A DNA stretch of 58,514 nt from positions 1 through 58,514 of the forward strand of contig CACZIO010000011.1 in NCBI GenBank assembly GCA_902781215.1, written 5' to 3'. The notes under the pieces were generated by a model, which made no database searches, was not told the origin of the DNA, and saw only the letters and a list, made by a program, of their open reading frames with translations. Positions 39,169 to 53,648 of the stretch are shown here, one piece after another (the stretch's first letter is position 1; the number at the start of each line of letters is the position of its first letter). The stretch is from an uncultured Lachnospiraceae bacterium. GTDB lineage: Bacteria; Bacillota; Clostridia; Lachnospirales; Lachnospiraceae. Position numbers and translations under genes: made by a program.

Positions 39169-39495
39169 TCCCGCCGGACACAGCCACAGGATCGCTGCAC
39201 CTGCCTGCACCTGTCATCCGCCGCTGCGTCGTTCCGGACAACCGATCTCTCCGGGCCGGACGGCGGCAGTTCGCCCGCTGTTTTCCGACTGGTGGAAAAA
39301 CTCTGTATTAACTCTTTCTTTCTCTTTTTTAAAATAGAGACGGTATAACTATATCCGCGCTTCTGACGCCTTGCGGAGCCGCTCGAAATGGCAGGCAGCC
39401 TGTGCAGGCGCGAAAGCTCGAAGCAGGCCCTGCGGGGTCTCACGCGCAGAGACGGTGTCATGAACACGGACGCAACAGGAAACAGGGGGTATCTG

Positions 39496-41409
39496 GTGAA
39501 GAATTTATATACGGATAACAGACCTGCAAATATTCTCAAGATGCTGGGGACCAAGTCCGGCCTGACGGTCGCCGCCATCGCCCAGGAGCTGGGGGTCAGC
39601 GAGCGGACCATCCGCAATGACATCCGCCAGCTGAACGAGGATCTGGGCGACGGCGCTTCGATCGAGGGCGTCCAGGGCCGCTACAGCCTGCGCATCTTTG
39701 ATCCGGACGCCTATAAAAAAGCATATGAAAAAATCTGTGATACCGACGGGATGTTTGACACGCCCCGCGGCCGGCAGAACTATATTTTCGCGGAACTGAT
39801 GAGGGCGGATGCCCCCCTCCTGACCGACGAGCTGGCCTACGAGATGAATGTGGGCCGGACGACCCTGGTCAGCGACCTCAAAAAGCTCCGCGAGGAGCTG
39901 ACGCCCTTCGGGCTCAAGATCGTCGGCAAGACCAGCAAGGGCATGATCCTGCACGGAAAGGAGCTGGATATCCGCACCTATGTGCTGGAGAACTCTTTCG
40001 ACGCCATCTACAGCGATTATCCCCTCGACCAGGAGATCCGCGAGATGATCCGGGCTGAGCTGCAGCAGAAGGCCTTCGAAAAACAGGTCGGCATCCAGTT
40101 CGAGCGCTACCTGATCCTGATGATGGACCGCTTCCTGACCGGACATTTCATCGGAAAGCTGACCGACGCCTACTACAATCTGACGGCAAACGCCGAGTTT
40201 TTCCGCGTCAACGGTATCATCGACCGCATCGCGGGACTCCTGCACGTGGATTTCCCCGTGGAGGAAAAGATCTTTACCTTCCTGCCCATCGCCGGCATGC
40301 GGACACCGGCCGATCTGGGCTCGGTGGAGGAAATGGAGCTCGACGAGACGATCGGTCCCCTCTCGGAAAAGATCATGGCACAGATCCGCGAGGAGCTGGG
40401 TGTTTCCATCGACCCCAGGGATTTTGCGGAGGAATTCTCCTATCACCTGATGTTCATGCTCAACCGTCTGCGCTTCAAGATCCGTCAGCCCAACGTCATG
40501 CTGGAGGAGCTGCGGACCAAGTTCCCCCTGGCCTATGAGATGTCCGGCATCGCCGCCCGCGTCATCGAGCGGGAGGAGGGCCTGGAGGTCAACACCGACG
40601 AGCGCGGCCACCTGGCCACCTACTTCGGCGTCTTCCTGGAGGAGAACAATCTCGGCCAGCGCCGGCCCTTCCGGATCGCGGTCATCTGCGGCACCGGCCG
40701 GGTCACAGCCCGCCTCATCAGCGTCCAGCTCAAAAAGATCATGGACAGCCAGGTGCAGATCCGGACTATGTCTGACACTGCCGTCTCCCCGGAGACCCTG
40801 GAGACCTACGATGTGGTCCTGTCCACCGTGGACCTGCCCTTCAGGCCCGACAAGCCCGTCATCCGGATCCGCGAGATCTTCGACGAGCGCGAACTCAAGC
40901 AGAAGCTGGAGAAGGTCCGCTACTGGGACAGCGTCGACATGCCCCTGCTCGACGACAACCAGTTCATCATGAGCAGCCTCCTGGACGAGGACAGAGTCTT
41001 CTTTTTTGAAAAAGGACGCAGCTACGAGGATGCCCTGTCGGAGATGGTCGAGATCCTGGCTGATGAGGGCCAGATCGATCCCGGCTTCGGGGACCGCCTG
41101 GCCGAGCGCGAGGAAAAGGGCTCCATGGTCTTTGACAACGGCGTCGCGATCCCCCACGGAATCCAGACCGCCACAAACCGGATGGTCCTGGCCATCGGCA
41201 TCTTCGAACAGCCCGTGCAGCACAGGGGCCAGGAGGTCCGTGTCATCTTCTTCATGGCGCTCCCGGAGGAGTCGGACGACGATGACATGCTCATGATCCG
41301 CGTCTACGACGAGCTCCTGGAGATCTCCCGCGACACCGATATGCTCCAGGCCATCTCCCGCAGCTCCAATTATCCGGAGCTTCTGCGGGTCCTCTACAAA
41401 AAAGCATAA
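39496..41409 (+). CDS. PRD-containing transcriptional regulator with EIIB- and EIIA-like domains (GutR-like)
   Basis: This protein of about 637 residues starts with an HTH (LTVAAIAQELGVSERTIRNDIRQL). A second HTH-like segment, two PRD domains (around SFDAIYSDYPLD and FSYHLMFMLNRL), a GatB-like EIIB domain with CGTGRVTARLIS and a C-terminal EIIA domain with IPHGIQT follow. Such regulators activate sugar operons, depending on phosphorylation by the PTS. The neighbours make glucitol the likely signal. The start is unclear: GTG 39496 has AGGGGG upstream, while ATG 39460 is the alternative. The 39169-39459 gap holds only its AT-rich upstream region. Confidence 0.88.
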   Translation: MKNLYTDNRPANILKMLGTKSGLTVAAIAQELGVSERTIRNDIRQLNEDLGDGASIEGVQGRYSLRIFDPDAYKKAYEKICDTDGMFDTPRGRQNYIFAELMRADAPLLTDELAYEMNVGRTTLVSDLKKLREELTPFGLKIVGKTSKGMILHGKELDIRTYVLENSFDAIYSDYPLDQEIREMIRAELQQKAFEKQVGIQFERYLILMMDRFLTGHFIGKLTDAYYNLTANAEFFRVNGIIDRIAGLLHVDFPVEEKIFTFLPIAGMRTPADLGSVEEMELDETIGPLSEKIMAQIREELGVSIDPRDFAEEFSYHLMFMLNRLRFKIRQPNVMLEELRTKFPLAYEMSGIAARVIEREEGLEVNTDERGHLATYFGVFLEENNLGQRRPFRIAVICGTGRVTARLISVQLKKIMDSQVQIRTMSDTAVSPETLETYDVVLSTVDLPFRPDKPVIRIREIFDERELKQKLEKVRYWDSVDMPLLDDNQFIMSSLLDEDRVFFFEKGRSYEDALSEMVEILADEGQIDPGFGDRLAEREEKGSMVFDNGVAIPHGIQTATNRMVLAIGIFEQPVQHRGQEVRVIFFMALPEESDDDDMLMIRVYDELLEISRDTDMLQAISRSSNYPELLRVLYKKA

Positions 41410-41675: not shown

Positions 41676-41732
41676 GATTTCCGCGGCCATGGAAAAGGGC
41701 GGATTAAGTCCTGCGTTTTTTTCAGGTATCAT
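41676..41732 (+). promoter_or_regulatory. Glucitol-regulon promoter P1 (gutM)
   Basis: GATTTCC (41676-41682), eight bases, then GGAAAA form one operator palindrome. It is followed by GGATTAAG (41701-41708), 18 bases and TATCAT (41727-41732). The bases after it (ACAATCATCAAAGGAAA) are also shared with the other two glucitol promoters. Confidence 0.8.
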
Positions 41733-41840
41733 ACAATCATCAAAGGAAACACAGGCGCTCCGGCAATCGATACGATCGGAAGGCCGGAAAGCAGAACCAT
41801 TGCAAAGGCAAGCGCAATATTAAAAAAACGGAGGTGGACC

Positions 41841-42299
41841 ATGCTGTCATTGATCATCGTTGTCGGAATCGCTTTTCTCCTGCAGGGACTTTTCAGTTTT
41901 CTCCAGATGAGGCACCTGTCCAATGAATTCATCAAGCTGCGCCGCAAGGGCAAGGTCGCCTTCGGCCGCAAATCCGGCGGCTTCCGCGCAGGCGCGGTCG
42001 TCATGTTCCGGATCGACGACGACGGCATCATCCAGGAGGGCCGGATGCTCTCCGGCCTCACCGCTTTCGCCAAGGTCAGACCTCTCGACGGCTTCGAGGG
42101 CCGCTACATCGGCAGCCTGACTGCGGCCGACGGCCCCTCCAGCCACAAAAACCTGTGCAAAGCCATCGAGGACGCCGCCCTCACCTACCGCAAGTACACC
42201 AACGGCGAAGTGATCGAAGAGTCGCCGACCCCCATGGAGAAAGCCGGTGCCGCTGTCACAAGCCTCCTGCGCAGACCCGCGAAGGCAAAGACCATGTGA
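41841..42299 (+). CDS. gutM: Glucitol operon activator GutM
   Basis: This 152-residue protein has an N-terminal membrane-type hydrophobic segment (LSLIIVVGIAFLLQGLFSFL) and the GutM core: MRHLSNEFIKLRRKGKVAFGRKSGGF and GAVVMFRIDDDGIIQEGRML. In enteric bacteria GutM assists activation of the glucitol operon; its mechanism is poorly known. The ATG has GGAGGTGGACC upstream. It follows the PRD regulator but has its own glucitol-type promoter and a strong terminator behind it. Confidence 0.93.
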   Translation: MLSLIIVVGIAFLLQGLFSFLQMRHLSNEFIKLRRKGKVAFGRKSGGFRAGAVVMFRIDDDGIIQEGRMLSGLTAFAKVRPLDGFEGRYIGSLTAADGPSSHKNLCKAIEDAALTYRKYTNGEVIEESPTPMEKAGAAVTSLLRRPAKAKTM

Positions 42300-42460
42300 T
42301 TCGCTCACAGCCCGTCTGCAGCGCCCGGGGAGCTGAGCCCCGCCTTCGCTTTTCCCAAACTTTTGACAACTCCTTTCTGCCGGGCCCTCTGCGGACTTCA
42401 CCCCCCGGTTCGCCGGGTCCGGTCCATTTAAAATACATCCCCTGTAATTGCCTCCCTGTC

Positions 42461-42511
42461 AAAACCGCCTGCGGCATCGATCACGATCCGGTCGATGCCG
42501 CAGGCGGTTTT
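42461..42511. terminator. Strong bidirectional terminator between gutM and uvrA
   Basis: A perfect 20-base stem (AAAACCGCCTGCGGCATCGA and its complement) encloses an 11-base loop. A- and T-tracts at the ends serve both convergent genes. Confidence 0.85.
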
Positions 42512-42516
42512 CATTT

Positions 42517-42623
42517 CGGGAACCATAGAGACGGTTCCATGGCCCTTTTTTCATTCCGGACCACGGGGACGATTCTGTGATTCCTTTTTCATTTCTGCAG
42601 GCCGGGGCCGGAGAACCGTCCCC
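42517..42623. repeat. REP-like elements between gutM and uvrA
   Basis: Three related motifs: GGAACC...GAGACGGTTCC (42519-42538), GGGGACGATTCTG (about 42565) and inverted GAGAACCGTCCCC (42611-42623). They belong to the GGGACGGTTC family. Confidence 0.7.
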
Positions 42624-42644
42624 CCGGCTCCCGGACACCACTGT

Positions 42645-45230
42645 CTACAGGAAGCGGCCGGTCAGGCTCTCCGGGCAGGCGCGGACCTGCGCGGGGGTCC
42701 CGCTGACGACGATGCGGCCGCCCTCGGCGCCGCCGCCGGGTCCCATATCGACGATATAGTCCGCACTGCGGATGACATCCAGGTCATGCTCGATGACAAC
42801 AACTGTCGCGCCCTGGTCCAGGAGGGTCCGGAAGACGCCGAGCAGGACGCGGACGTCCTGCGGGTGCAGGCCGATGGTCGGCTCGTCAAAGACAAAGACG
42901 GAGTCCGTCTGGGGTCTGCCCATCTCGCTGGCCAGCTTGAGGCGCTGGGCCTCGCCGCCGGACAGGCCGGGGGTCTCCTCACCCAGGGTCAGGTAGCCCA
43001 GTCCCAGATCGTGCAGGACCTGCAGGCGGCGCCGGGTCGCGGGCAGGTCCGCGCAGGCCTCCAGGGCCTCGTCGACACTCATGGCCATCAGGTCGGGCAG
43101 GCTGTAGGCACTGCCGTCCTTTGCCCTGCGCAGGACCTCGTGGGCCTCCCGCCGGTAGCGGCGGCCGCGGCAGTCCGGGCAGGGAATATCGACATCCGGC
43201 AGGAACTGGACATCCAGGGAGATCTCTCCCGTCCCGTCACAGGTCGGGCAGCGGAGTTTGCCGGTGTTGTAGGAGAAGTCGCCCGCCTTGTATTTGCGCG
43301 CTTTCGCGTCCGGTGTCCGCGCGTAGATCTTGCGCAGCTCATCGTGGACATTGGCATAGGTGGCGACAGTGGACCGGACATTGATCCCGATGGGCGTCGC
43401 GTCGATCAGCCTGGCCTGGCTGATGCCCGGCGCCTCGATGGACTTCACGTGCGCGGGCAGCTTCCCGCCTCCCGCCTGCAGGGCCTGGATCAGGCTCTCC
43501 AGGACCATGGTCGTCTTGCCGGAGCCGGAGACGCCGGTGACCACCGTCAGCCTCCCCACGGGAATCTTCACATCCAGAGGGTGCACCGTGTGGATCCGGT
43601 CCGTCACCATGTGGATCGTCCCCCCTGCAAAAAGGTCCTGTTCAGGTGTTTTTCCGCTCTTCCGGTCACTCTGTCCGGTCTTTTCACTGTTTTTTTCTAT
43701 CCCGCCGCGGCCGGAAGCAGGACCTGCAGAGGATGTGCAGGCCGCATCCTCCCCCATCCGGACCGCCTTTTCGCCGGACAGGTAGGGTCCGATCACGGAG
43801 GCGGGATTTTTTTCAATGTCTTCGACGGTCCCCTCGGCGATGACGGTCCCGCCGGAGGCGCCGGCGCCGGGGCCCATCTCGACGACCCAGCCCGCGTGGG
43901 ACAGGACCTGGGTGTCGTGGTCGACCAGGACGACCGTGTTGCCGTCCGCCTCCAGGTCATCCATGACTCCGGTCAGGCCCTTCAGGTTATAGGGATGGAG
44001 GCCGATGGAGGGCTCGTCCAGGACATAGAGGACGCCGGTCGTGCGGTTGCGTACCGCCCTGGCCAGCTGCACGCGCTGGCGCTCCCCGGTCGACAGGGTC
44101 GAGGACGCGCGGTCCAGGCCCAGGTAACCCAGGCCCAGGTCCATCAGGCGGACGGAGGTGTCCAGGAAGGACTCGCAGATGTTGCGGGCCATGGGCCGCA
44201 TGGGCTCCGGCAGGGACTCCGGCACACCCTTTACCCAGGGAATGAGCTCCGAGAGGGTCATGGCCGCCGCCTGGTCCAGGCCGATCCCGCGGACCCGGGG
44301 CGCGCGGGCGGCGTCGGACAGCCGTGTCCCGCGGCAGTCCGGGCAGGTCCCCTCGGTCAGGAAGCGCTCGATCCGCTTCATGCCCTTTTCATCCTTGACC
44401 TTGGAGAGGGCGTTTTCCACCGTGTAGACGGCGTTGTAGTAAGTGAAATCCATCTCCGTGGACTGTTTTGTCTGCGGATTCATATAAAAAATATGCTTTT
44501 TTTCCGCCGGACCGTGGAAGACCATCTCCCGCTCCTCCGCCGTGAGGTCCCGGAAGGGCACATCCGTGCGCACACCCATGGCGCGGCAGACATCCTTCAT
44601 GAGCGACCACATCAGGGTTCCCCAGACCACGACCGCACCCTCGTCGATGGTCAGGCTCTCGTCCGGAACCAGGGTCGACTCATCCACCGTGCGCGTGATC
44701 CCGGTCCCTCCGCAGGTCGGGCAGGCCCCGGAGCTGTTGAAGGCCAGCTCCTCCGCGCCGGGTCCGTAGAAACCGGCCCCGCAGACCGGACAGACTGTCT
44801 CCTGTCCCGCCGCTACGTCCATGGACGGCTCCACATAGTGGCCGTTGGGGCAGCGGTGGCTGGCCAGGCGCGAGAACATGAGCCGCAGGCTGTTGAGCAA
44901 CTCCGTCATGGTCCCGAAGGTGCTCCGAATCCCCGGAACGCCCGGCCGCTGGTGCAGGGCCAGGGCCGCCGGGACGTAGCAGACATCGTCCACATGCGCC
45001 CGCGCCGCCTGGGTCATGCGCCTGCGGGTATAGGTGGAGAGCGACTCCAGATACCTCCGCGACCCCTCCGCGTACAGGACGCCCAGGGCCAGCGACGATT
45101 TGCCCGACCCCGACACTCCCGCGATCGCGGTGATTTTGTTGAGCGGAATATCCACATCGATGTTTTTCAGGTTGTGTACGCGCGCCCCCCGCACCTGCAT
45201 GGAGCGCGGGAGCATTTTTCCGTCTTCCAT
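42645..45230 (-). CDS. UvrA paralogue (UvrA2-like ABC ATPase)
   Basis: This 861-residue protein has two ABC modules: GVSGSGKSSLA early and TGVSGSGKTTM near residue 570. The signatures LSTGERQR and LSGGEAQR, and Walker B YVLDEPSIGLHP and FDEPTIGLHP, are present, as are zinc-binding Cys clusters (CPTCDGTGE...CPDCRG). It is shorter than housekeeping UvrA (about 940) and resembles UvrA-like proteins tied to drug resistance or accessory repair. A low-complexity linker (Ser/Gly/Lys) splits the modules. ATG 45228-45230 follows AAAAGGAC; ATG 45236 is the alternative. The 1,112-codon frame on the other strand is a shadow. Confidence 0.9.
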   Translation of the reverse strand: MEDGKMLPRSMQVRGARVHNLKNIDVDIPLNKITAIAGVSGSGKSSLALGVLYAEGSRRYLESLSTYTRRRMTQAARAHVDDVCYVPAALALHQRPGVPGIRSTFGTMTELLNSLRLMFSRLASHRCPNGHYVEPSMDVAAGQETVCPVCGAGFYGPGAEELAFNSSGACPTCGGTGITRTVDESTLVPDESLTIDEGAVVVWGTLMWSLMKDVCRAMGVRTDVPFRDLTAEEREMVFHGPAEKKHIFYMNPQTKQSTEMDFTYYNAVYTVENALSKVKDEKGMKRIERFLTEGTCPDCRGTRLSDAARAPRVRGIGLDQAAAMTLSELIPWVKGVPESLPEPMRPMARNICESFLDTSVRLMDLGLGYLGLDRASSTLSTGERQRVQLARAVRNRTTGVLYVLDEPSIGLHPYNLKGLTGVMDDLEADGNTVVLVDHDTQVLSHAGWVVEMGPGAGASGGTVIAEGTVEDIEKNPASVIGPYLSGEKAVRMGEDAACTSSAGPASGRGGIEKNSEKTGQSDRKSGKTPEQDLFAGGTIHMVTDRIHTVHPLDVKIPVGRLTVVTGVSGSGKTTMVLESLIQALQAGGGKLPAHVKSIEAPGISQARLIDATPIGINVRSTVATYANVHDELRKIYARTPDAKARKYKAGDFSYNTGKLRCPTCDGTGEISLDVQFLPDVDIPCPDCRGRRYRREAHEVLRRAKDGSAYSLPDLMAMSVDEALEACADLPATRRRLQVLHDLGLGYLTLGEETPGLSGGEAQRLKLASEMGRPQTDSVFVFDEPTIGLHPQDVRVLLGVFRTLLDQGATVVVIEHDLDVIRSADYIVDMGPGGGAEGGRIVVSGTPAQVRACPESLTGRFL

Positions 45231-45274
45231 ACTCATGTCCTTTTCTGTCTTTTCATGTTGTCCGACGATCCACA

Positions 45275-45289
45275 GGGACGGTTCTCCGG
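45275..45289. repeat. REP-like motif between cbiD and uvrA
   Basis: A single GGGACGGTTCTCCGG lies in the 63-base gap between two same-strand genes. Confidence 0.6.
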
Positions 45290-45293
45290 CCCC

Positions 45294-46613
45294 TCACGCT
45301 TCCGCAAATCCTTTCAGCTCTTCGATAAAGGCCGCAGCGTCCGGTGTCCTGCCCAGCTCTCCGTGCACGTTGGAAAAAACAATGATTTCCACCTGCATCC
45401 TGCCGCCGGCCCAGTCCTGCATGACCTCCTGGATGCGCCGGGTCATCTCCGCCAGGACCGGCTCCGCCAGGCCCCTGGCCTGCAGGATGCGGACAGCCTC
45501 GTCCGTGGAGACGCAATCCGCGAGCAAACTGCGGACCGGAATTTCCGTCTCCGGGACAGATCCGTCGGCAGGGGCGCCGGGGTTTTCGCCAGTATTTCCT
45601 TTTTCGACCGTGCCGCCCGCCGGCGCGGCACCCTGCATAACCGCCTCCGCGATGTCCGCCAGGATCTCCATCCGGTGGTCGCCGTACTGCGAGTGGGTGT
45701 TGCGGATCCCACCGGCAACCTTGACCAGCTTCCCGATGTGGCCCACGAACAGCATGCGTGTGAATCCGGCAGCGGCCGCCATTTTCACTGTGTCACAGAT
45801 AAAATTGGAGGAGGTGACTGCCGTGTCCAGTGAAAAGCCGTAGGCATCCAGAAAAAACTGCTTCCCGTAGTTTCCCGGGGCAGCGGGCAGGATGGGCCAG
45901 CGCTCCCGCGCGCGGACGCTGATCTCCGTCCGGATCGTATCCAGGAGGGCCTGCTCGCTCATGGGCTCCACAATGCCGGTCGTGCCCAGGATAGAGATGC
46001 CGCCGACGATGCCCAGCTTCGGGTTGAAGGTCTTCTCCGCCAGCGCCCGGCCCTCCGGGACGGAGATGGTCACCGAGAGACCGACGCACCGGGCCCGGCC
46101 GGGCCTGGTGTCTTCCCTTGTGAGATCTCTTTTCGGCATGTCGAGGCGCTCCTTTGAAAGCTCCTGCAGGGCTCCGGGAAAGCACTCGGAGACAGCCTCC
46201 CGCACCGCCTGCGCGATCATGGCGCGCGGCGTGCTGTTGATGGCAGCGGCGCCAACCGGCTGGTCCAGCCCCGGCCTGGTCACGCGGCCCACGCCCTCGC
46301 CCCCGTCAATCGAAATCCCGGGCTGGTCCGACCATGCGACGCATGCGTAGACCAGGGCGCCGTTTGTCACGTCCGGATCGTCGCCGCTGTCCTTGCGGAC
46401 CGCGCACAAAACGGACGCCTCATCACAATGTATATCTTCCAGCTCCAGCAGCAGTTCGATTCCCTTCGGTGTCAGCAGGAGGACATAGGACAGCTTCTCC
46501 CCGGTCACCAGCATACGGGCGGCTGCCTTCGCCGCTGCTGCGGCGCAGCTCCCGGTCGTATATCCCCGGCGGAGTTTCTGTCCGCCTTTTTCAACATAAG
46601 AATCCAGTCTCAT
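45294..46613 (-). CDS. cbiD: Cobalt-precorrin-5B (C1)-methyltransferase
   Basis: This 439-residue enzyme of the anaerobic cobalamin pathway methylates C1 of cobalt-precorrin-5B. The N-terminal RRGYTTGSCAAAAAKAA is the CbiD hallmark. GGISILGTTGIVEPMSEQAL and FVGHIGKLVKVAGGIRNTHS follow. It is longer than typical (about 370) because of a Gly/Pro insert near residue 340. No other cobalamin gene is in view, so it is isolated here. AGGATATAAG precedes the ATG. Confidence 0.95.
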   Translation of the reverse strand: MRLDSYVEKGGQKLRRGYTTGSCAAAAAKAAARMLVTGEKLSYVLLLTPKGIELLLELEDIHCDEASVLCAVRKDSGDDPDVTNGALVYACVAWSDQPGISIDGGEGVGRVTRPGLDQPVGAAAINSTPRAMIAQAVREAVSECFPGALQELSKERLDMPKRDLTREDTRPGRARCVGLSVTISVPEGRALAEKTFNPKLGIVGGISILGTTGIVEPMSEQALLDTIRTEISVRARERWPILPAAPGNYGKQFFLDAYGFSLDTAVTSSNFICDTVKMAAAAGFTRMLFVGHIGKLVKVAGGIRNTHSQYGDHRMEILADIAEAVMQGAAPAGGTVEKGNTGENPGAPADGSVPETEIPVRSLLADCVSTDEAVRILQARGLAEPVLAEMTRRIQEVMQDWAGGRMQVEIIVFSNVHGELGRTPDAAAFIEELKGFAEA

Positions 46614-46842
46614 CTTATATCCTGCACTTTTTGTTCATTCCGAATGATTTGTATATCCCACGATGATTGTAAGGGAAGGGTTTCCCGGAAGTCAACCGCA
46701 GCCCTGCCTGTAGTGACAGCCTGCCCCTCATAAAGTTACAGGGTTTTTCGCGAAAATACCGCTAAACACCTCGAGTTTCGAGACAGTCTGAACTGTAACC
46801 TCATAAACACAGATGCAATAATCTTCCATAGATTGTCTTAAC

Positions 46843-46916
46843 AAAACAGTAAAGAACAGTAAAAATATTGAAAAACAGTAAAGAACAGTAAAAACATCAA
46901 AAAACAGTAAAAACAG
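46843..46916 (+). repeat. Three-copy 29-bp direct repeat (iteron-like) upstream of the ATPase remnant
   Basis: Copies start at 46843, 46872 and 46901 (last truncated). Each opens AAAACAGTAAAGAACAGTAA (the third lacks AGAACAGT part). The region is AT-rich and lies in the otherwise gene-free gap 46614-46970. Confidence 0.8.
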
Positions 46917-46970
46917 TTTGAAAAGTCGTTTACACATATCCACATTTTCACCGGATAAGGAGACCTGATC

Positions 46971-47215
46971 ATGGCACAAAATCCCTATACACTCATGTCC
47001 GGCCGGGAGCCGGCTCAGCTGATCTCAAGGGCTGCGCAGATGTCAATGGTCACAGATTCTTTTCTGGCCGAATCTCCTTCAACCCTTACAGAAAGCGTCT
47101 GATCCAGAAGGGCATTGCAGATGGCAACCGGCACGGACACCTGACCTTCACGCTGCCCCTGTTTGATCTGTTTGTAGTGGAAAACAGCGATTTCCCCGGA
47201 GAAATCAATTTGTGA
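46971..47215 (+). pseudogene. Remnant of an AAA-family ATP-binding protein with large internal deletion
   Basis: A strong AAGGAG site precedes ATG 46971. The first 35 codons (MAQNPYTLMSGREPAQLISR...) resemble the start of clostridial AAA ATPases that open with NPFTL-FGKEP. After about 47077 the match shifts frame and continues as NPYRKRLIQKGIADGNRHG and LTFTLPLFDLFV, which resembles the C-terminus of the same family, ending at TGA 47213-47215. The P-loop and about 300 residues between are gone. So this is one gene collapsed by deletion plus frameshift. The assignment rests on remembered family patterns. Confidence 0.6.
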
Positions 47216-47350
47216 GGAACCGCCGCTGGAACCGTTTCACTCATAAAGTCATTAATGAGGCTGCTTCCGGCTGTTTTGCTTATGAAGTGATCGAACGGAA
47301 TCGCTGCCGGCCGGATCAGTGCGTGGAAATCAGCCCGCGGATTTGCCGGC

Positions 47351-47980
47351 TCACTCCAGCACAAACTGCTCCATGTGCCCCGGACAGATCAGGATCTCCC
47401 CGGGCAGATTCCGCAGGAACGGCTCTGTCACCTTCGCGTAAATCTCCGGGTCCCCGCCCGGAAAGCGGAGGATCGGCTTCTCGCCCGGGATCAGATAGTC
47501 GCCGCTGAAAAAGGTCTTTTCATCCAGAAAAATGCCCGAGCTTCCGGGCGTGTGCCCGGGAAGGGAGACGAAGCGGAAGGTGTGGTTCCGCCATTTCAGA
47601 ACGGCGTCGTCGGGGATGATCTCATCGGCCTCCCGCCCCGTAAAGGGATCATAGTGGATCCCCGGCTTTCCGCGGAAATAGAGATAGACCTCCATGACTC
47701 TGGACATGTTCAGCCGGGCGCTGCGGACGCCGGCGTCGCACCGCTCTGTCGCCAGATAGCGGGCCTTCGGATATTCCTGCCGCAGGGCCTCCAGACCAGC
47801 CATATGGTCGCAGTGCTCGTGGGTCAGCAGGATCAGTTCGGGTGTCCAGTTCCTTTTTTTGAGTATGCGGAACAGACCCTCGGATTCCCCTGGATCGATG
47901 ACGACACACCGGTCTCCCTCCGCGAGTATGTAGCAATTGCTTTCTGTCAGAGGATCTACGGAAACGACTTGCTGCAGCAT
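47351..47980 (-). CDS. MBL-fold metallo-hydrolase (glyoxalase II-like)
   Basis: This 209-residue hydrolase has the metal motif LLTHEHCDHMAGLEAL near residue 52, SLPGHTPGSSGIF with the third His near residue 142, FFSGDYLIPG with the bridging Asp, and a C-terminal CPGHMEQ. The fold and length match YcbL/GloB-like enzymes acting on thioesters. AGGAGAGG precedes the ATG. It lies after the MATE gene on the same strand, separated by a strong terminator. Confidence 0.9.
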   Translation of the reverse strand: MLQQVVSVDPLTESNCYILAEGDRCVVIDPGESEGLFRILKKRNWTPELILLTHEHCDHMAGLEALRQEYPKARYLATERCDAGVRSARLNMSRVMEVYLYFRGKPGIHYDPFTGREADEIIPDDAVLKWRNHTFRFVSLPGHTPGSSGIFLDEKTFFSGDYLIPGEKPILRFPGGDPEIYAKVTEPFLRNLPGEILICPGHMEQFVLE

Positions 47981-48001
47981 ATTTTACCTCTCCTGATATG
48001 T

Positions 48002-48039
48002 CAGTGTAAAAAAGCGCCATCAGGCGCTTTTTTACACTG
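48002..48039. terminator. Perfect hairpin terminator between MATE and MBL genes
   Basis: A 17-base perfect stem (CAGTGTAAAAAAGCGCC and its complement) with a four-base loop and built-in A/T tracts. It follows the MATE stop by about 20 bases. Confidence 0.88.
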
Positions 48040-48057
48040 CTTTCACACATTTTGGTA

Positions 48058-49443
48058 TCAGTCCCGGGTCAGCCGTTTGATCCACTTGCCGCTGCGCACG
48101 CGCAGAAAAACGGGGAGTCCCTTGAAGATCTGGTCGGACTGGATGCAGAGGACGACCAGGGGGATGGGCAGCTTCCAGACAAAGGCGGCGAGCAGGGAGA
48201 GGGGCATGACGATGCCCCAGATGCTGATGATGTTCATCCACATGGTAAAGGTCGTGTCGCCGCTGCCGCGCAGGACTCCGTTGCAGACCGGCATCTGATA
48301 GGACATGCCGACCATGACAAAGCACAGTACGATGATGATCTGGTTGGCATACTGCAGGGCGGTCGGCGTCAGACTGTAGTGGGCCAGCAGGGGGCCGCGC
48401 AGGATGAACAGGAGCAGGGCCAGGACAAGGCCGATCCCCAGGTCCACGACCGACAGGGTCCGGGCATCCGACCGGATGCGCCGCATGTTGCCCTTGCCGA
48501 CGGACTGGCCCATGACAACCGCCGAGGCGGAGGCCATGGCGCTGACGACCACCTTCAGGTACTGGTAGAAGGTCATGGAGACCGAGTTGGCCGCGATCGC
48601 GTCCGAGGCGTCCGCGCCGGGCAGGTGTCCCAGAATCGCCGTCTGCAGCGGCACGGAAATGGCCCAGATCATGGCCATGACGATGACCGGCACCGCGACC
48701 CGGATGAAGTCACCCGCCAGCTGGCCCGCACCGGTCAGGAAAGACTCAGAGAAGAGCTCCAGCTTCTTGTCCCTGACACGCACATAGAAGAGCACGATCA
48801 AAAACTCCAGCGCGCGGGCCGTCAGTGTGCCGATCGCCGCGCCGCGGATTCCCATCTCCGGGAAGCCGAAATGTCCGAAGATCAGGGTATAGTTGATGGC
48901 CGTGTTGACGATCAGCGAGACGACCGACACGTAGAAGGAAATCTTCACGGTGCCGACGCAGCGCAGCGCCCCCATCATGACACTGGTCAGGATAAACAGG
49001 GGGAAGGTAAAGAGCAGGATCTGCATGTAGCGCATGCCCTCGGCCACGATGGCCCCGTCCCGGGTGAAAAATCCCAGGACCGGCGCCGGGAACAGGGCGC
49101 AGATGACAGCGAAGAAAAGCCCGCAGCCCAGGCCCAGCTTCAGGGCCAGTCCCGTGATCTTGCGCACCGGCGTCATCCGCCCCTGGCCGTAGTACTGGGA
49201 CGCCAGGATGATGTGGGCATCGCAGACCGCGATCGACACCTGCTGGACCAGAAAGAAGATCTGGTTGACCGTCGCCGCCCCCGAGAGGGAGGTCTGGGAA
49301 TAGCTGCCCATCATGACATTGTCGATCATGTTGACACTGTAGGCCACCAGATTCTGGAGCGCCACCATAATGAAGATGGAGAACAGCTGCCTGTAAAAGG
49401 CCCTGTCCTGTGTAAAAAATGTTTCGCCTGTTTTCATGTTCAT
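48058..49443 (-). CDS. MATE-family efflux transporter (copy 2)
   Basis: This 461-residue pump has twelve helices. Typical motifs are VAYSVNMIDNVMMGSYSQ, the early Asp-containing region, ARALEFLIVLFYV and NGVLRGSGDTTF. It differs clearly from the MATE protein at 19314-20657. The frame extends upstream through a Lys-rich stretch without ribosome binding site; ATG 49441-49443 has GGAG just before it and fits the family N-terminus. Confidence 0.91.
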   Translation of the reverse strand: MNMKTGETFFTQDRAFYRQLFSIFIMVALQNLVAYSVNMIDNVMMGSYSQTSLSGAATVNQIFFLVQQVSIAVCDAHIILASQYYGQGRMTPVRKITGLALKLGLGCGLFFAVICALFPAPVLGFFTRDGAIVAEGMRYMQILLFTFPLFILTSVMMGALRCVGTVKISFYVSVVSLIVNTAINYTLIFGHFGFPEMGIRGAAIGTLTARALEFLIVLFYVRVRDKKLELFSESFLTGAGQLAGDFIRVAVPVIVMAMIWAISVPLQTAILGHLPGADASDAIAANSVSMTFYQYLKVVVSAMASASAVVMGQSVGKGNMRRIRSDARTLSVVDLGIGLVLALLLFILRGPLLAHYSLTPTALQYANQIIIVLCFVMVGMSYQMPVCNGVLRGSGDTTFTMWMNIISIWGIVMPLSLLAAFVWKLPIPLVVLCIQSDQIFKGLPVFLRVRSGKWIKRLTRD

Positions 49444-49765
49444 CTTGCTCCGCCTTTTGTTTTCTGATCCCTGCTTTTTGTTTTTTATGATTTTGTCTTT
49501 CTCTTTGATCTCTTTTATTCTTTTCTGCCTCACCACAGCAGGGAAGCTGCTGCCCCGGCGGGTAGCCTGTATCATGAAATATTTCCTGACACCAAGCTAC
49601 ATTATCATTCTACTCCCCCGTTTGCAATTTATTCTTTCATTTTTTTGCCGCAATCAGGAACCGGAATCCCTTCATATCAATCACTTCATATCAATCACAA
49701 AATGAAACTGAAATACAGGCCTACCTGAGAGTTCAGGGCAGACCCATACCTTCTCAGGCCGGCAT

Positions 49766-49855
49766 ATTTCCGCGGCGTGGAAATACGTTGAACAAATCAA
49801 TTTCCATCTGAAAGGAAATTGCAGGATTAAGACACCCCTTCATTTCAGCTATGAT
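49766..49855 (+). promoter_or_regulatory. Glucitol-regulon promoter P2 (srlB)
   Basis: Two operator palindromes: ATTTCCGCGGCGTGGAAAT (49766-49784) and CAATTTCC-N8-GGAAATTG (49798-49821). GGATTAAG (49824-49831), 18 bases and TATGAT (49850-49855) follow. The shared tail ACAGTCATCGAAGGAAAACACAG then runs to the long srlB leader. The rest of the 49576-50057 gap has no gene. Confidence 0.82.
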
Positions 49856-50057
49856 ACAGTCATCGAAGGAAAACACAGCGACGGAAACACGAACACAAAG
49901 CACAGAACAAAACAGAAAGCATAGCCCTGCAACACAGAGTAAAAGCAGAAAGCAACGCACAAAAACAGAAAATCAGGAAAACGTCACCGCAAAAAACATC
50001 TACAGCATTTTTTATAAGAAATCAAAAAGGCATTCAACCAAAAGAGGAGGTTACAAA

Positions 50058-50423
50058 ATGAAGGTTATCTACGAGAATCAGGTCAAGGCAGCAGGCGCAT
50101 CCGTCGAGGAGTTCAAGGATGCAGGCATGTTCATCATTTTCGGTGAGAACGCACCCGAAGAGATCAAGGACTACTGCTACAGCGTCAGTGTCAATCCCAT
50201 CAACGGCGAGATCGCTCCCGGTCAGTTCCTGGTCATCGACGGCGAAGAGTTCAAGATCACCTGCGTCGGCCACGAGGCCCCCGTCACCCTCAAGGGCCTG
50301 GGCCACTGCACCATCAACTTCAGCGGCGCCACCGAGGCCGAGCTCCCCGGCACCATCTATGTCGAGGCAAAGCCCATGCCCGAAGTAAAGATCGGCACCA
50401 CCCTGCAGATCGTGGAGAAATAA
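50058..50423 (+). CDS. srlB: PTS glucitol/sorbitol-specific EIIA
   Basis: This 121-residue cytoplasmic phosphocarrier accepts phosphate from HPr and passes it to the EIIB Cys. It shows the family pattern: KDAGMFIIFGENAPEEIKDYC, PGQFLVIDGEEFKIT and a C-terminal KGLGHCTINFSG with the conserved His. AGGAGG lies eight bases before the ATG. It is the only EIIA of this type in view and may serve both permeases. It stands alone under the glucitol promoter P2. Confidence 0.95.
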   Translation: MKVIYENQVKAAGASVEEFKDAGMFIIFGENAPEEIKDYCYSVSVNPINGEIAPGQFLVIDGEEFKITCVGHEAPVTLKGLGHCTINFSGATEAELPGTIYVEAKPMPEVKIGTTLQIVEK

Positions 50424-50452
50424 AGCCGGCGCGGTTTTCCGCCGGAACCACC

Positions 50453-50499
50453 AGGGACGGATCCGGACGGTACTTTTTGTACCATCTGGATCCGTCCCT
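50453..50499 (+). terminator. REP-type hairpin terminator after srlB
   Basis: AGGGACGGATCC pairs with GGATCCGTCCCT, with an inner GGTAC/GTACC stem and T5 loop. It is built like the hairpin after trpA. A half-copy (GGTCCGTCCCTGATGG) lies near 50625. Confidence 0.7.
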
Positions 50500-50857
50500 T
50501 AGTTTTGCGTTCCTTTGGTTTTCTTTTGGTTTCGCTTTCAAACCGCTCAAACCGGTTCTCACCGGTATTTATTGTCCCGGTGAGAGCCGCCCCTGAATAT
50601 TTTGTGGTTTTTGTACCACTTAGGTCCGTCCCTGATGGTTTTCCCCCGGACCGAAATACCGGAGGGCCAGCATGGAAAAATTTCTCCAGCCGCCGGTTTC
50701 ATGATAATATGTTGTTGTCCAGCCGGATTTTCGGAAAGAATATCTGAACCCGGACTTGATCTCGAACAGCGCTTTTCCTGCAGCCTGTTTTCGGACAGCC
50801 TTTTTTTATAGAGACATTCTTAATATAGAGATTTTTATATTTTTTTCAGAAAAGAGT

Positions 50858-50899
50858 ACTAATAGAGTTTTTCAAAAAAAGCACTAATAGAGTTTTTCA
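50858..50899 (+). repeat. Direct repeat before the PanE-like gene
   Basis: ACTAATAGAGTTTTTCA occurs at 50858-50874 and 50883-50899 (period 25), with two more degenerate TATAGAGA copies upstream (50812-50840). It sits in the presumed promoter/leader, 26-67 bases before the ATG. Confidence 0.75.
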
Positions 50900-50924
50900 G
50901 AAAGTATTTCAGAAAGGAACACCT

Positions 50925-51836
50925 ATGGAGATCAGATCAGCCGCACTCATCGGCGCCGGCGCTGTCGGCGCCTTCTTTATCCGCGGACTCTCGGAGAAGC
51001 TGGGAGACAATTTCTGCATCATCGCAGAGGGAGAGCGCGCACAGCGCCTGCGGGATGAGGGCCTCATCCTGAACGGCCAACAGGTCCGCCCCAATGTCTA
51101 CTCCCCGGAGGAGGCGGCGGGCGCAGACCTCATCCTGGTCGCGACCAAATACAACGGCCTTCCGCAGATCCTCGACAGCCTGCGCCACATGACGGCACCG
51201 CACACCCTGATCGTCAGCGCCCTGAACGGGCTCGACAGCGAGGAGATCATCCAGGAGGCTGTCCGCGGCGACCACCTCCTCAACGCCTTCATGTTCATTC
51301 AGTCCCAGCGCGTCGGAAACCGGATCGACTACGACCTGGACGCCAAGGGTCTCGTTTTCGGCGAAAAGGACACGGCGGTCATGACGCCCCGCGCGCAGGC
51401 CCTGGACCGGCTCCTGACGGAGGCCGGCATCGCCCATCGATTTTCCCCGGACATCCTGACAGAGCAGTGGCAGAAGTTCTCGCTCAACATCAGCAACAAC
51501 CTGCCCCAGGCCCTTCTCAACGTCGGCTATGAGGCCTATGTCGACAGCCCCCACGTCCGCTTCATCCACGACCGCCTCTTCGACGAGGCCATCCGCGTGG
51601 CGGCTGCCTGCGGAGTCACCGTCCATTACGACGAGAACCGCCATGGCCGCGTCCAGCCGGACGCCCGCTTCTCCACCCTCCAGGACATCGACGCAGGGCG
51701 CCCGACCGAGATCGAGATGCTGGCCGGCGCCCTGATGAAAAAAGCGGCCGCCGTCGGCATCGAAGTTCCCTACACCACCTACACCTACCACGCCATCCGC
51801 GCCCTGGAGGAAAAAAACGAAGGCCTGATCCGCTGA
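50925..51836 (+). CDS. 2-dehydropantoate 2-reductase-family protein (ApbA/PanE-like)
   Basis: This 303-residue NADPH-dependent ketoacid reductase has the N-terminal Rossmann motif IGAGAVGAFFIRG and LVATKYNGL. The C-terminal helical domain carries EQWQKFSLNISNNLPQALL, where the catalytic Lys is expected, and RPTEIEMLAGALMKKA. Many such proteins reduce compounds other than ketopantoate, and no panB or panC is near, so the substrate is open. AGAAAGGAAC precedes the ATG. Confidence 0.9.
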   Translation: MEIRSAALIGAGAVGAFFIRGLSEKLGDNFCIIAEGERAQRLRDEGLILNGQQVRPNVYSPEEAAGADLILVATKYNGLPQILDSLRHMTAPHTLIVSALNGLDSEEIIQEAVRGDHLLNAFMFIQSQRVGNRIDYDLDAKGLVFGEKDTAVMTPRAQALDRLLTEAGIAHRFSPDILTEQWQKFSLNISNNLPQALLNVGYEAYVDSPHVRFIHDRLFDEAIRVAAACGVTVHYDENRHGRVQPDARFSTLQDIDAGRPTEIEMLAGALMKKAAAVGIEVPYTTYTYHAIRALEEKNEGLIR

Positions 51837-52048
51837 CCTGCCGGTTCCTCATTTTCGCACGGTCCGCACCTGCCGCGCAGACCGCATACGTCCGTCCGCG
51901 CCGCCCGCCCACCGGGTGTAAATGATCAAAATCCAGGCGGCCGGCACGCTGCGAACGTGCCGCAGACCGCTTGCGGCCCGATGTGGTAAAAACAGCAAAC
52001 AAACTTGTTCACCCACCTTTGTAAACAGGAGGTCATGGTACCAAAATC

Positions 52049-53134
52049 ATGAGACGTAAAATGAAACACTGGATGATTCTGCCGCTCCTGCTGATCCTGG
52101 TCCTTGTGATCGTCGGCGGCTATGCGGCCTATGTTTTTCTGACCTACAGCCGGATCGAGGACAACCTGGCTCTGGAGCCCGCAGGCAACGCCGCGCAGGC
52201 CGCGCAGACCGGCCGGGAGTATACGATCGTCTCCTGGAACGCCGGCTTCGGCGCCTACACGGCAGACTTCACCTTTTTCATGGACGGCGGAAAAGAGAGC
52301 CGCGCCCGGTCGCGGGAGAGCGTGGAGACCTGCATTGGAGGCATCGCGGATACGACCGTCTCCTTCGCACCGGACTTTGCCCTCTTTCAGGAGGTCGACA
52401 CGGACTCGACGCGGAGCTGGCACGTCGATGAAGCGCAGATGATCCTGGACCGCTTCGCCGCCGAGGGCAGCTTGGACAGCGTCTTCGCGCAGAACTACCA
52501 CTCGGCCTACCTGATGGTCCCCGTCACACAGCCCCACGGCAGGTCCAATTCCGGGATCCTGACTCTGAGCCGGGCGGACATCACCTCCGCCCTCCGCAGG
52601 AGCCTTCCGGTCGCGTCGGGATTCAAAAAGCTCCTGGACCTGGACCGCTGCTACAGCATCTGCCGCATTCCCGTGGAGAACGGCCGGGACCTGGTCCTCT
52701 TCAACGTCCACCTCTCCGCCTACGGAACCGACGCCGCCCAGGGCAGCGCCCAGCTGGACATGCTTTTCGCGGATATGGAAAAAGAGTACGCGCAGGGCAA
52801 TTATGTCATCTGCGGCGGTGATTTCAACCACGACTTCACCGGCGATTCCCGCTCCTTTTTCAACGACGGCAGCCAAAAGACCTACAGCTGGTGCCAGCCC
52901 TTCCCGGATGACGCAGTCCCGGCGGGCTTTGTCAAATGCACTGCCTACGCGGAGGGGATGACCGCGACGACCCGCTACACCGACATTCCCTATTCCGAGG
53001 ACAGCTTCACCGTCATCCTCGACGGCTTCCTGGTGTCGGACAACGTGACCTGTACCTACGTGCAGAACATCGACACCGCCTACCGGTACACCGACCACAA
53101 TCCCGTCGTCATGAAATTCACCCTGGCGGAATAA
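52049..53134 (+). CDS. Membrane-anchored endonuclease/exonuclease/phosphatase-family protein
   Basis: This 361-residue protein begins with one transmembrane anchor (MILPLLLILVLVIVGGYAAYVFL) and an outside DNase I-like fold. Motifs are TIVSWNAGFGAY, FALFQEVD with the metal Glu, LVLFNVHLS, VICGGDFNHDF and a final YTDHNPVVM with the catalytic His. It could be a phosphodiesterase or sphingomyelinase-type enzyme at the cell surface. It lies 212 bases after the PanE-like gene and ends in a good terminator. Confidence 0.88.
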   Translation: MRRKMKHWMILPLLLILVLVIVGGYAAYVFLTYSRIEDNLALEPAGNAAQAAQTGREYTIVSWNAGFGAYTADFTFFMDGGKESRARSRESVETCIGGIADTTVSFAPDFALFQEVDTDSTRSWHVDEAQMILDRFAAEGSLDSVFAQNYHSAYLMVPVTQPHGRSNSGILTLSRADITSALRRSLPVASGFKKLLDLDRCYSICRIPVENGRDLVLFNVHLSAYGTDAAQGSAQLDMLFADMEKEYAQGNYVICGGDFNHDFTGDSRSFFNDGSQKTYSWCQPFPDDAVPAGFVKCTAYAEGMTATTRYTDIPYSEDSFTVILDGFLVSDNVTCTYVQNIDTAYRYTDHNPVVMKFTLAE

Positions 53135-53192
53135 CCGCCATAGAACCCTCATCATATGTAATAACAGAACTGCATAGACAGCAATCGCCCGC

Positions 53193-53246
53193 AAAAAGCG
53201 GTTTCCTTTCCCCGGATGACTCCGGCGAAGAGGGAGCCGCTTTTTT
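53193..53246 (+). terminator. Terminator after the EEP-family gene
   Basis: AAAAAGCGGTTTCC pairs with GGGAGCCGCTTTTTT around a GC-rich loop, ending in six T. Confidence 0.8.
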
Positions 53247-53421
53247 CATTTCATTGACTTGCCCTCCGCCCCGCATCCTCCCGGCGCTCATCTGATTCCG
53301 CATTCTCTCGAGCTCTTCTTCTGTCTCTGCCCCGCATCCTCCCGGCGCGCTTGCAGAAGCACAACTGTTTTTGCCCGCCTTTTTTCCACCGCCCGGCAAA
53401 AAACTGAACAAATCCTTTTCC

Positions 53422-53506
53422 ATTTCCGGGGAAATCCGCTGCACAAATCGATTTCCGCGGCGGGGGAAATCGCGGAATTAAAGCGGGCCTCCTTTTGAAA
53501 TATCAT
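53422..53506 (+). promoter_or_regulatory. Glucitol-regulon promoter P3 (srlD-srlA-srlE)
   Basis: Operator 1 is ATTTCCGGGGAAAT (53422-53435). Operator 2 is GATTTCC-N8-GGAAATC (53450-53471). GGAATTAA (53474-53481), 19 bases and TATCAT (53501-53506) follow, then the shared ACAGACATCAAAGGAAAACAC. It is the clearest of the three copies. Confidence 0.83.
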
Positions 53507-53648
53507 ACAGACATCAAAGGAAAACACCACAGCGAAACGGAGACAGAAACGACCTGAAAGCCGCTGCGGAAAACAGAACAAAGCACACAATCCAAAACAC
53601 TCAACACTCAGAAGGTTCATCGTTCAATTTCAAAAGGAGGAGAAAAAA

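What the first reader, a model, noticed from the sequence alone, without database searches (positions are those of the whole stretch)
41676..53506. Shared operator-promoter module in three glucitol transcription units
Upstream of gutM, srlB and srlD the DNA shares a composite block. It has one or two GATTTCC-N8-GGAAATC palindromes, GGATTAAG or GGAATTAA, then 18-19 bases to TATCAT/TATGAT, then a common ACA(G/A)xCATC(A/G)AAGGAAA leader. The -35 region is poor, as for activator-dependent promoters. The PRD regulator at 39496-41409 is the obvious candidate activator. I know no published motif of this form for glucitol PRD regulators.
Basis: partly seen in the sequence, partly recalled or inferred. 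Interest (0 to 1): 0.75.

Follow-up and report, generated by a model that had tools for sequence, protein, structure and literature searches.

The report
Sorbitol-regulon GutR operator-promoter module
The repeated DNA block in front of the sorbitol genes looks like the landing site of the sorbitol activator GutR, a known kind of switch in Firmicutes, here in short tandem arrays in front of several separate genes and also in front of the activator's own gene.

Summary
The block is real. TTTCC-N8-GGAAA-N7-ATTAA (up to one mismatch) occurs four times in the 3.33-Mb genome. In 61 congeners, all 23 with the regulator have the block at sorbitol or regulator promoters and none of the 38 without it does, but only two of those 38 carry sorbitol-PTS genes.

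It is best read as the GutR operator. Of 11 distant Firmicutes gut loci with a PRD GutR, 10 have an ATTAA half-site 19 (once 18) bp before a -10-like box. The stricter TGYATTAA form lies before srl/gutR genes in 7 of 11 such loci and in 0 of 32 gut loci without GutR. A held paper says the GutR binding sequence is conserved in Firmicutes (PMC5723342), so the kind is known.

New here: a dispersed regulon with 34-35-bp tandem operator units (27 of 38 structural promoters, 0 of 13 regulator promoters), and a conserved early leader also found at a mannitol-PTS and a sugar-ABC gene. Binding and activation are inferred.

The parts
39282..39311 (+). GutR operator unit of the regulator's own promoter (reads as TTTCC-N7-GGAAA-N8-ATTAA)
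   Evidence: same form directly upstream of the regulator in 16 of 23 regulator-bearing congeners, plus G010 where the contig ends
39330..39335 (+). putative -10 TAAAAT of prdR, 18 bp after ATTAA
39496..41409 (+). PRD regulator (GutR-like): HTH_11, Mga HTH, PRD, EIIB-like, EIIA-2
   Evidence: GTG start; an ATG-started frame begins at 39388
41678..41707 (+). GutR operator unit of gutM
41727..41732 (+). putative -10 TATCAT of gutM
41738..41749 (+). conserved early leader CATCAAAGGAAA
41841..42299 (+). gutM
   Evidence: PF06923
49767..49783 (+). distal operator unit of srlB (inner repeat, 7-base spacer)
49801..49830 (+). proximal GutR operator unit of srlB
49850..49855 (+). putative -10 TATGAT of srlB
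49861..49872 (+). conserved early leader CATCGAAGGAAA
50058..50423 (+). srlB (sorbitol PTS EIIA)
   Evidence: PF03829; start read
53383..53400 (+). third (distal) operator unit of srlD, 9 of 10 inner-repeat bases
53417..53434 (+). second operator unit of srlD
53452..53481 (+). proximal GutR operator unit of srlD
53501..53506 (+). putative -10 TATCAT of srlD
53512..53523 (+). conserved early leader CATCAAAGGAAA
53649..54446 (+). srlD (sorbitol-6-phosphate dehydrogenase)
   Evidence: NF004817
54620..55171 (+). srlA (sorbitol PTS EIIC)
   Evidence: NF049923
55374..56417 (+). srlE (sorbitol PTS EIIB)
   Evidence: PF03612 and PF07663

Best explanation
The block is the operator-promoter of a GutR regulon. 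A dimer of the PRD regulator (two HTH domains per subunit) binds an inverted repeat TTTCC-N7/8-GGAAA plus an outer half-site ending in ATTAA. That half-site overlaps the -35 hexamer, 17 bp before the -10, so the bound protein makes up for a poor -35, as a class II activator does. When sorbitol is taken up, the sorbitol EII proteins stop phosphorylating the EIIB/EIIA-like domains of GutR, while PRD2 phosphorylation keeps it active, and GutR switches on gutM, srlB, srlD-srlA-srlE and its own gene. Structural promoters carry up to four operator units at 34-35 bp spacing, which probably bind GutR cooperatively. Shown here: site positions, conservation, spacing, arrays, co-occurrence with the regulator. 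Inferred: binding by this protein, activation, the phosphorylation logic (from MtlR and GutR of other Firmicutes), cooperativity.
For: Four composite sites in the genome, at four sorbitol/regulator promoters, control 0. In 61 congeners 32 of 53 matches lie before sorbitol or regulator genes, against 16 matches in all for the reversed pattern. Regulator present in 23 genomes, each with a site at an srl or regulator promoter. Regulator's own promoter carries the site in 16 of 23, plus one cut by a contig end. TGYATTAA-N18/19-TANNNT before srl/gutR genes in 7 of 11 distant loci with PRD GutR and 0 of 32 without; ATTAA 19 bp (once 18) before a -10-like box in 10 of 11 such loci. Poor -35. PRD2 His317 and EIIA His554 invariant in 10 aligned GutR proteins. 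L. casei and P. parvulus GutR reported as activators with a conserved binding sequence (PMC5723342). MtlR of B. subtilis: palindrome with conserved flanks towards the -35, called class II, autoinduced (PMC3217849).
Against: No binding or expression data. PMC5723342 reports no clear homology between the L. casei and P. parvulus upstream regions, and expects no cross-talk, which speaks against one shared operator for all Firmicutes. Only two regulator-less congeners with sorbitol-PTS genes exist as negatives, and they were only partly examined. L194 has a PRD GutR but no such site; the distant regions were viewed by eye before the test. The left outer half-site of distant promoters (ATTAGT-like) does not read the same way in this genus (ACTAAT/ACAAAT). 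The EIIB cysteine is not kept in all aligned GutR.
Confidence: 0.85

Rival explanations
1. Another DNA-binding protein (a catabolite or polyol regulator encoded elsewhere) binds the palindrome, and the PRD regulator only travels with the genes.
For: No binding data; co-occurrence within one genus can reflect shared inheritance of a gene cluster.
Against: In relatives the regulator can lie on other contigs or stretches than the sorbitol genes and still co-occurs; the site lies at the regulator's own promoter; distant gut operons share the half-site and spacing only where a PRD GutR is present. No cre-like match with up to one mismatch at the four promoters.
Confidence: 0.1
2. The shared block is only a recent duplication of one promoter within the genome, its similarity reflecting descent rather than binding.
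For: The similarity runs on through the -10 into the leader.
Against: The bases between the elements differ among promoters while the elements and their spacing are kept, across genomes and across promoters of different genes; the regulator's promoter keeps operator and spacing but not the leader; distant phyla members keep the half-site and spacing.
Confidence: 0.03
3. The regulator works on RNA as an antiterminator and the palindrome is part of a transcript structure.
For: PRD proteins include RNA-binding antiterminators (recalled).
Against: The regulator has HTH/Mga DNA-binding domains and no RNA-binding domain among its hits; the palindrome lies upstream of a -10-like box at fixed distance.
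Confidence: 0.01

Closest known systems
GutR operator and gut promoter of Firmicutes (Lactobacillus casei GutR, Alcantara 2008, cited in PMC5723342; Pediococcus parvulus gutFRMCBA)
   Same: PRD activator with HTH, EIIB- and EIIA-like domains, beside gutM and the sorbitol PTS genes; in P. parvulus pPP1 a TGCATTAA half-site 19 bp before TATATT.
   Different: There one operon with (as far as read here) one site; here four separate promoters, tandem units at 34-35 bp, a GC-richer inner repeat and a conserved leader. The L. casei site itself could not be read here.
MtlR operator of Bacillus subtilis mtlA/mtlR (PMC3217849)
   Same: PRD activator, palindrome with conserved flanks next to the -35, autoinduction, class II geometry as proposed there.
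   Different: Different sequence (TTGTCAC/GTGCCAA-type in the primers shown); no arrays mentioned in the passages read.
E. coli srl/gut system (GutM activator, GutR repressor; roles as stated in PMC5723342)
   Same: gutM and the same PTS genes.
   Different: The E. coli GutR is described there as a repressor; the regulator here is a PRD protein with EIIB/EIIA-like domains.

Membership tests
Firmicutes GutR regulon | PRD regulator with HTH, PRD, EIIB-like and EIIA-like domains | tested here: met
   (PF02302 just below its cut-off); alignment with distant GutR at 22-30% identity
Firmicutes GutR regulon | regulator beside gutM and sorbitol PTS genes | tested here: met
   gutM next to the regulator, the others within 16 kb
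Firmicutes GutR regulon | inverted repeat with a flank reaching the -35 of the gut promoter | tested here: met
Firmicutes GutR regulon | same half-site and spacing as other PRD-GutR gut promoters | tested here: met
   10 of 11 loci, L194 lacking it; strict form 7 of 11
Firmicutes GutR regulon | same sequence as the footprinted L. casei site | not testable with these tools
   paper not held
Firmicutes GutR regulon | GutR binding and sorbitol-dependent activation | not testable with these tools
   needs bench work
MtlR regulon | TTGTCAC/GTGACAA-type palindrome at the promoter | tested here: not met
   the sorbitol promoters read lack it; the own mtlA promoter has it
CcpA cre site | TGNAANCGNTNNCA | tested here: not met
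   no match with up to one mismatch at the four promoters

The most novel reading that the evidence does not exclude
The conserved early leader ATC(A/G)AAGG(A/G)AA, 6 bases after the -10, is a second, operator-independent control element shared by carbohydrate promoters under different activators. In this genome the pattern TANNNT-N6-ATCRAAGGRAA is exact at five places only: the three sorbitol promoters, mtlA (with an MtlR-like palindrome upstream) and a gene for an MglB-like sugar-binding protein. It could act at promoter escape or on the 5' end of the mRNA, for example in catabolite control.
Probability: 0.15. Interest if true: 0.6.

Novelty: new variant of a known kind. Interest (0 to 1): 0.36.

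Why it matters
It gives a concrete, testable operator and regulon for a PRD sugar activator in a Lachnospiraceae genus known here from genome assemblies. It proposes a common GutR promoter geometry (ATTAA half-site over the -35, 19 bp to the -10) for regulators only 22-30% identical. The tandem units with 34-35 bp period give a natural series of one to four operators for testing how PRD activators cooperate.

Tried and rejected
The genome-contig scan with the regulator gave two relatives only. The palindrome alone was a poor marker: 37 places per strand in the own genome with up to two mismatches. gutM orthologues were of little use: 1 of 20 loci has the block within 900 bp (the own one), two of the 20 having under 60 bp of upstream sequence; in most relatives gutM lies shortly downstream of srlD. 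N7-form matches in G019, G020 and G081 lie before other genes, and G081 has no regulator, so they were not counted as regulon sites. Paper searches for Lachnospiraceae sorbitol regulation and tandem PRD operators gave nothing relevant in the listings; led to PMC5723342, PMC3217849 and PMC3616900 (passages only). PMC3616900 lists GutR among Lactobacillales regulons; no motif is in the passages shown.

Known weaknesses. The srlB query was translated one base out of frame; one search repeats it in frame (84-92% identity in congeners, sites still placed before srlB; srlB then also found in most distant gut loci). One search classified 53 of 53 rows but 37 of the 68 rows, by exact string, so rows with one string share one label; I checked the 23 regulator genomes by coordinates. 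The site list was picked from earlier hits, not from all promoters: srlD loci L103 (masked) and L105 (degenerate site) were left out, and it holds near-identical rows such as L092/L093. Of 34 non-own rows, 31 were fetched. Of 52 plasmid records, six were opened. Two of the 32 loci counted as without PRD GutR (L247, L260) have weak partial PRD-regulator hits some kilobases away. One search scanned only the coding strand of each locus.
Full report
The window is one whole contig (C11) of a 3.33-Mb, 132-contig genome. The only two relatives of the regulator found in the named genome collection are titled Lachnospiraceae. The relevant genes are a PRD regulator (HTH_11, Mga, PRD, EIIB-like, EIIA-2), gutM, srlB, and srlD-srlA-srlE. 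gutM is separated from srlB by minus-strand UvrA-like, CbiD and MatE genes, and srlB from srlD by ApbA- and Exo_endo_phos-family genes.

Observation. The three blocks are present and in register. From palindrome centre to the first base of TATCAT/TATGAT is 40.5 bp in all three, and 19 bases separate ATTAA from the -10. The palindrome alone is a weak signal. The composite TTTCC-N8-GGAAA-N7-ATTAA with up to one mismatch is specific: four places in the genome, all here, all on the coding strand, reversed-pattern control zero.

Relatives. In 61 genomes of the genus (a sample of a larger group) 53 matches were found, against 16 for the reversed pattern. Of the 53, 32 lie before srlD (18), srlB (7), srlE (4), the regulator (2) or gutM (1); one is cut by a contig end (G076 C258); 20 are elsewhere. 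The srlE promoters were found by the motif, not by an srlE query. The regulator's promoter has a form with the inner spacer one base shorter and the next gap one longer; it lies directly upstream of the regulator in 16 of 23 regulator-bearing genomes, and once (G010) before a contig end. The regulator is found in 23 of 61 genomes. By the union, each of the 23 has a site at an srl or regulator promoter. None of the other 38 does. But only G070 and G080 of the 38 have a PF03829 or PF06923 gene, so there are two informative negatives, and for them only the fetched upstream regions were checked.

Beyond the genus. A class-wide search with the regulator (391 genomes) found six others at 27-30% identity. 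All six have sorbitol PTS genes beside it and five have gutM. A phylum-wide gutM search (398 genomes) and plasmid records added gut loci. Eleven loci have a PRD GutR: L189-L194, L240, L244, L275 (Pediococcus parvulus), L276 (Ligilactobacillus salivarius), L279 (Aerococcus tenax). Thirty-two do not. The genus form TG[CT]ATTAA followed after 18-19 bases by TANNNT was found nine times in the eleven loci (0.75 expected from dinucleotide shuffles); eight of the nine lie within 320 bp upstream of an srl or gutR gene, in seven loci. In the 32 others it occurs twice (0.95 expected), neither within 320 bp upstream of an srl gene. I had viewed the upstream regions of the GutR loci by eye first, so the test is not blind. 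With the looser ATTAA, the 11 promoters examined in 10 loci have a TANNNT box at 19 bp in ten cases and at 18 bp in one (L193); L194 showed no such site. An inner TTTYC/GRAAA-like repeat also lies upstream of ATTAA (8-10 of 10 bases, but with degenerate scoring and free spacing in AT-rich DNA, a lenient test).

Reading. The ATTAA element is therefore best read as the outer half-site of the GutR operator, overlapping the -35 (3-4 of 6 matches to TTGACA at 17 bp). This is the layout of a class II activator, as proposed for MtlR in B. subtilis, whose operator is a palindrome with conserved flanks towards the -35 and whose gene is autoinduced (PMC3217849, passages). GutR of L. casei and P. parvulus is described as an activator, and the GutR binding sequence as conserved in Firmicutes (PMC5723342, passages). 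Against a single shared operator, the same paper finds no clear homology between the L. casei and P. parvulus upstream regions. From recall only, the abstract of Alcantara 2008 reports a 35-bp GutR footprint and a Firmicutes consensus with an inverted repeat; the paper is not held. PRD2 His317 and EIIA His554 are invariant in ten aligned GutR proteins, compatible with PTS control; the EIIB cysteine present here is not kept in all.

What is particular here. (a) The regulon is dispersed over four promoters. (b) Of 38 structural promoters in the genus set, 27 have a second unit 34-35 bp upstream (srlD 18 of 19, srlB 5 of 14, srlE 4 of 4, gutM 0 of 1), some three or four units; of 13 regulator promoters none has; shuffled upstream sequence reaches the threshold in 6 of 2550 trials. 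Of 11 distant promoters one (L189 srlA) scored 9 of 10 for an upstream unit with lenient scoring, the others 7 or less. The period is about 3.3 helical turns; cooperativity is a guess. (c) A leader close to ATCAAAGGAAA follows the -10 in 35 of 38 structural promoters (8 or more of 11 bases) and in 0 of 14 regulator promoters. In the own genome TANNNT-N6-ATCRAAGGRAA is exact at five places: the three sorbitol promoters, a mannitol PTS EIICBA gene with a TTGTCAC/GTGACAA repeat upstream, and a gene for a protein resembling MglB (below that family's cut-off). The reversed pattern gave three hits with up to one mismatch, where the true pattern gave eight, so the two extra places are suggestive only.

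Verdict. The kind is known (a GutR operator and PRD-activator promoter). The dispersed, tandem-array form and the leader are the new parts. Binding and activation remain to be shown.

Noticed in passing
own genome C47:2245-2267 (L177) and C6:42202-42224 (L176): The sorbitol-promoter leader ATC(A/G)AAGG(A/G)AA also stands 6 bases after a -10-like box before a mannitol PTS EIICBA gene, with a TTGTCAC/GTGACAA repeat upstream, and before a gene for an MglB-like sugar-binding protein.
   Followed up: partly
L148 8680-8704 (G010 C79): A similar leader (ATCAAAGGAAAG) after TATACT, upstream of a gene that reads by eye like a sugar-type oxidoreductase.
   Followed up: no
G033:C132:12089-13986 and G068:C4:26312-28215: The regulator orthologue is split into two adjoining reading frames in these two assemblies; assembly error or broken gene was not examined.
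   Followed up: no
G034:C64:18018-19382 and G067:C5:88418-89779: A second, 34-35% identical PRD-type regulator lies next to the first in these two genomes.
   Followed up: no
L149, L200, L207 and L201, L202, L203: N7-form operator-like matches at matching places in G019, G020 and G081, three before a gene that reads by eye like a HAD-type phosphatase and three before unknown short genes; G081 lacks the regulator.
   Followed up: partly
window 41841-42299: In the fetched relatives gutM mostly lies shortly downstream of srlD; only in the window genome does it stand by the regulator with its own operator (1 of 20 gutM loci).
   Followed up: partly
L279 5919-5960 (Aerococcus tenax): By eye, a cre-like stretch TTGACAGCGCTTACC directly follows the GutR half-site; none was found at the window's four promoters.
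   Followed up: no
The left outer element reads ATTAGT in most distant gut promoters but ACTAAT or ACAAAT in this genus, as if its orientation had flipped around a shared GTAC-like core.
   Followed up: partly
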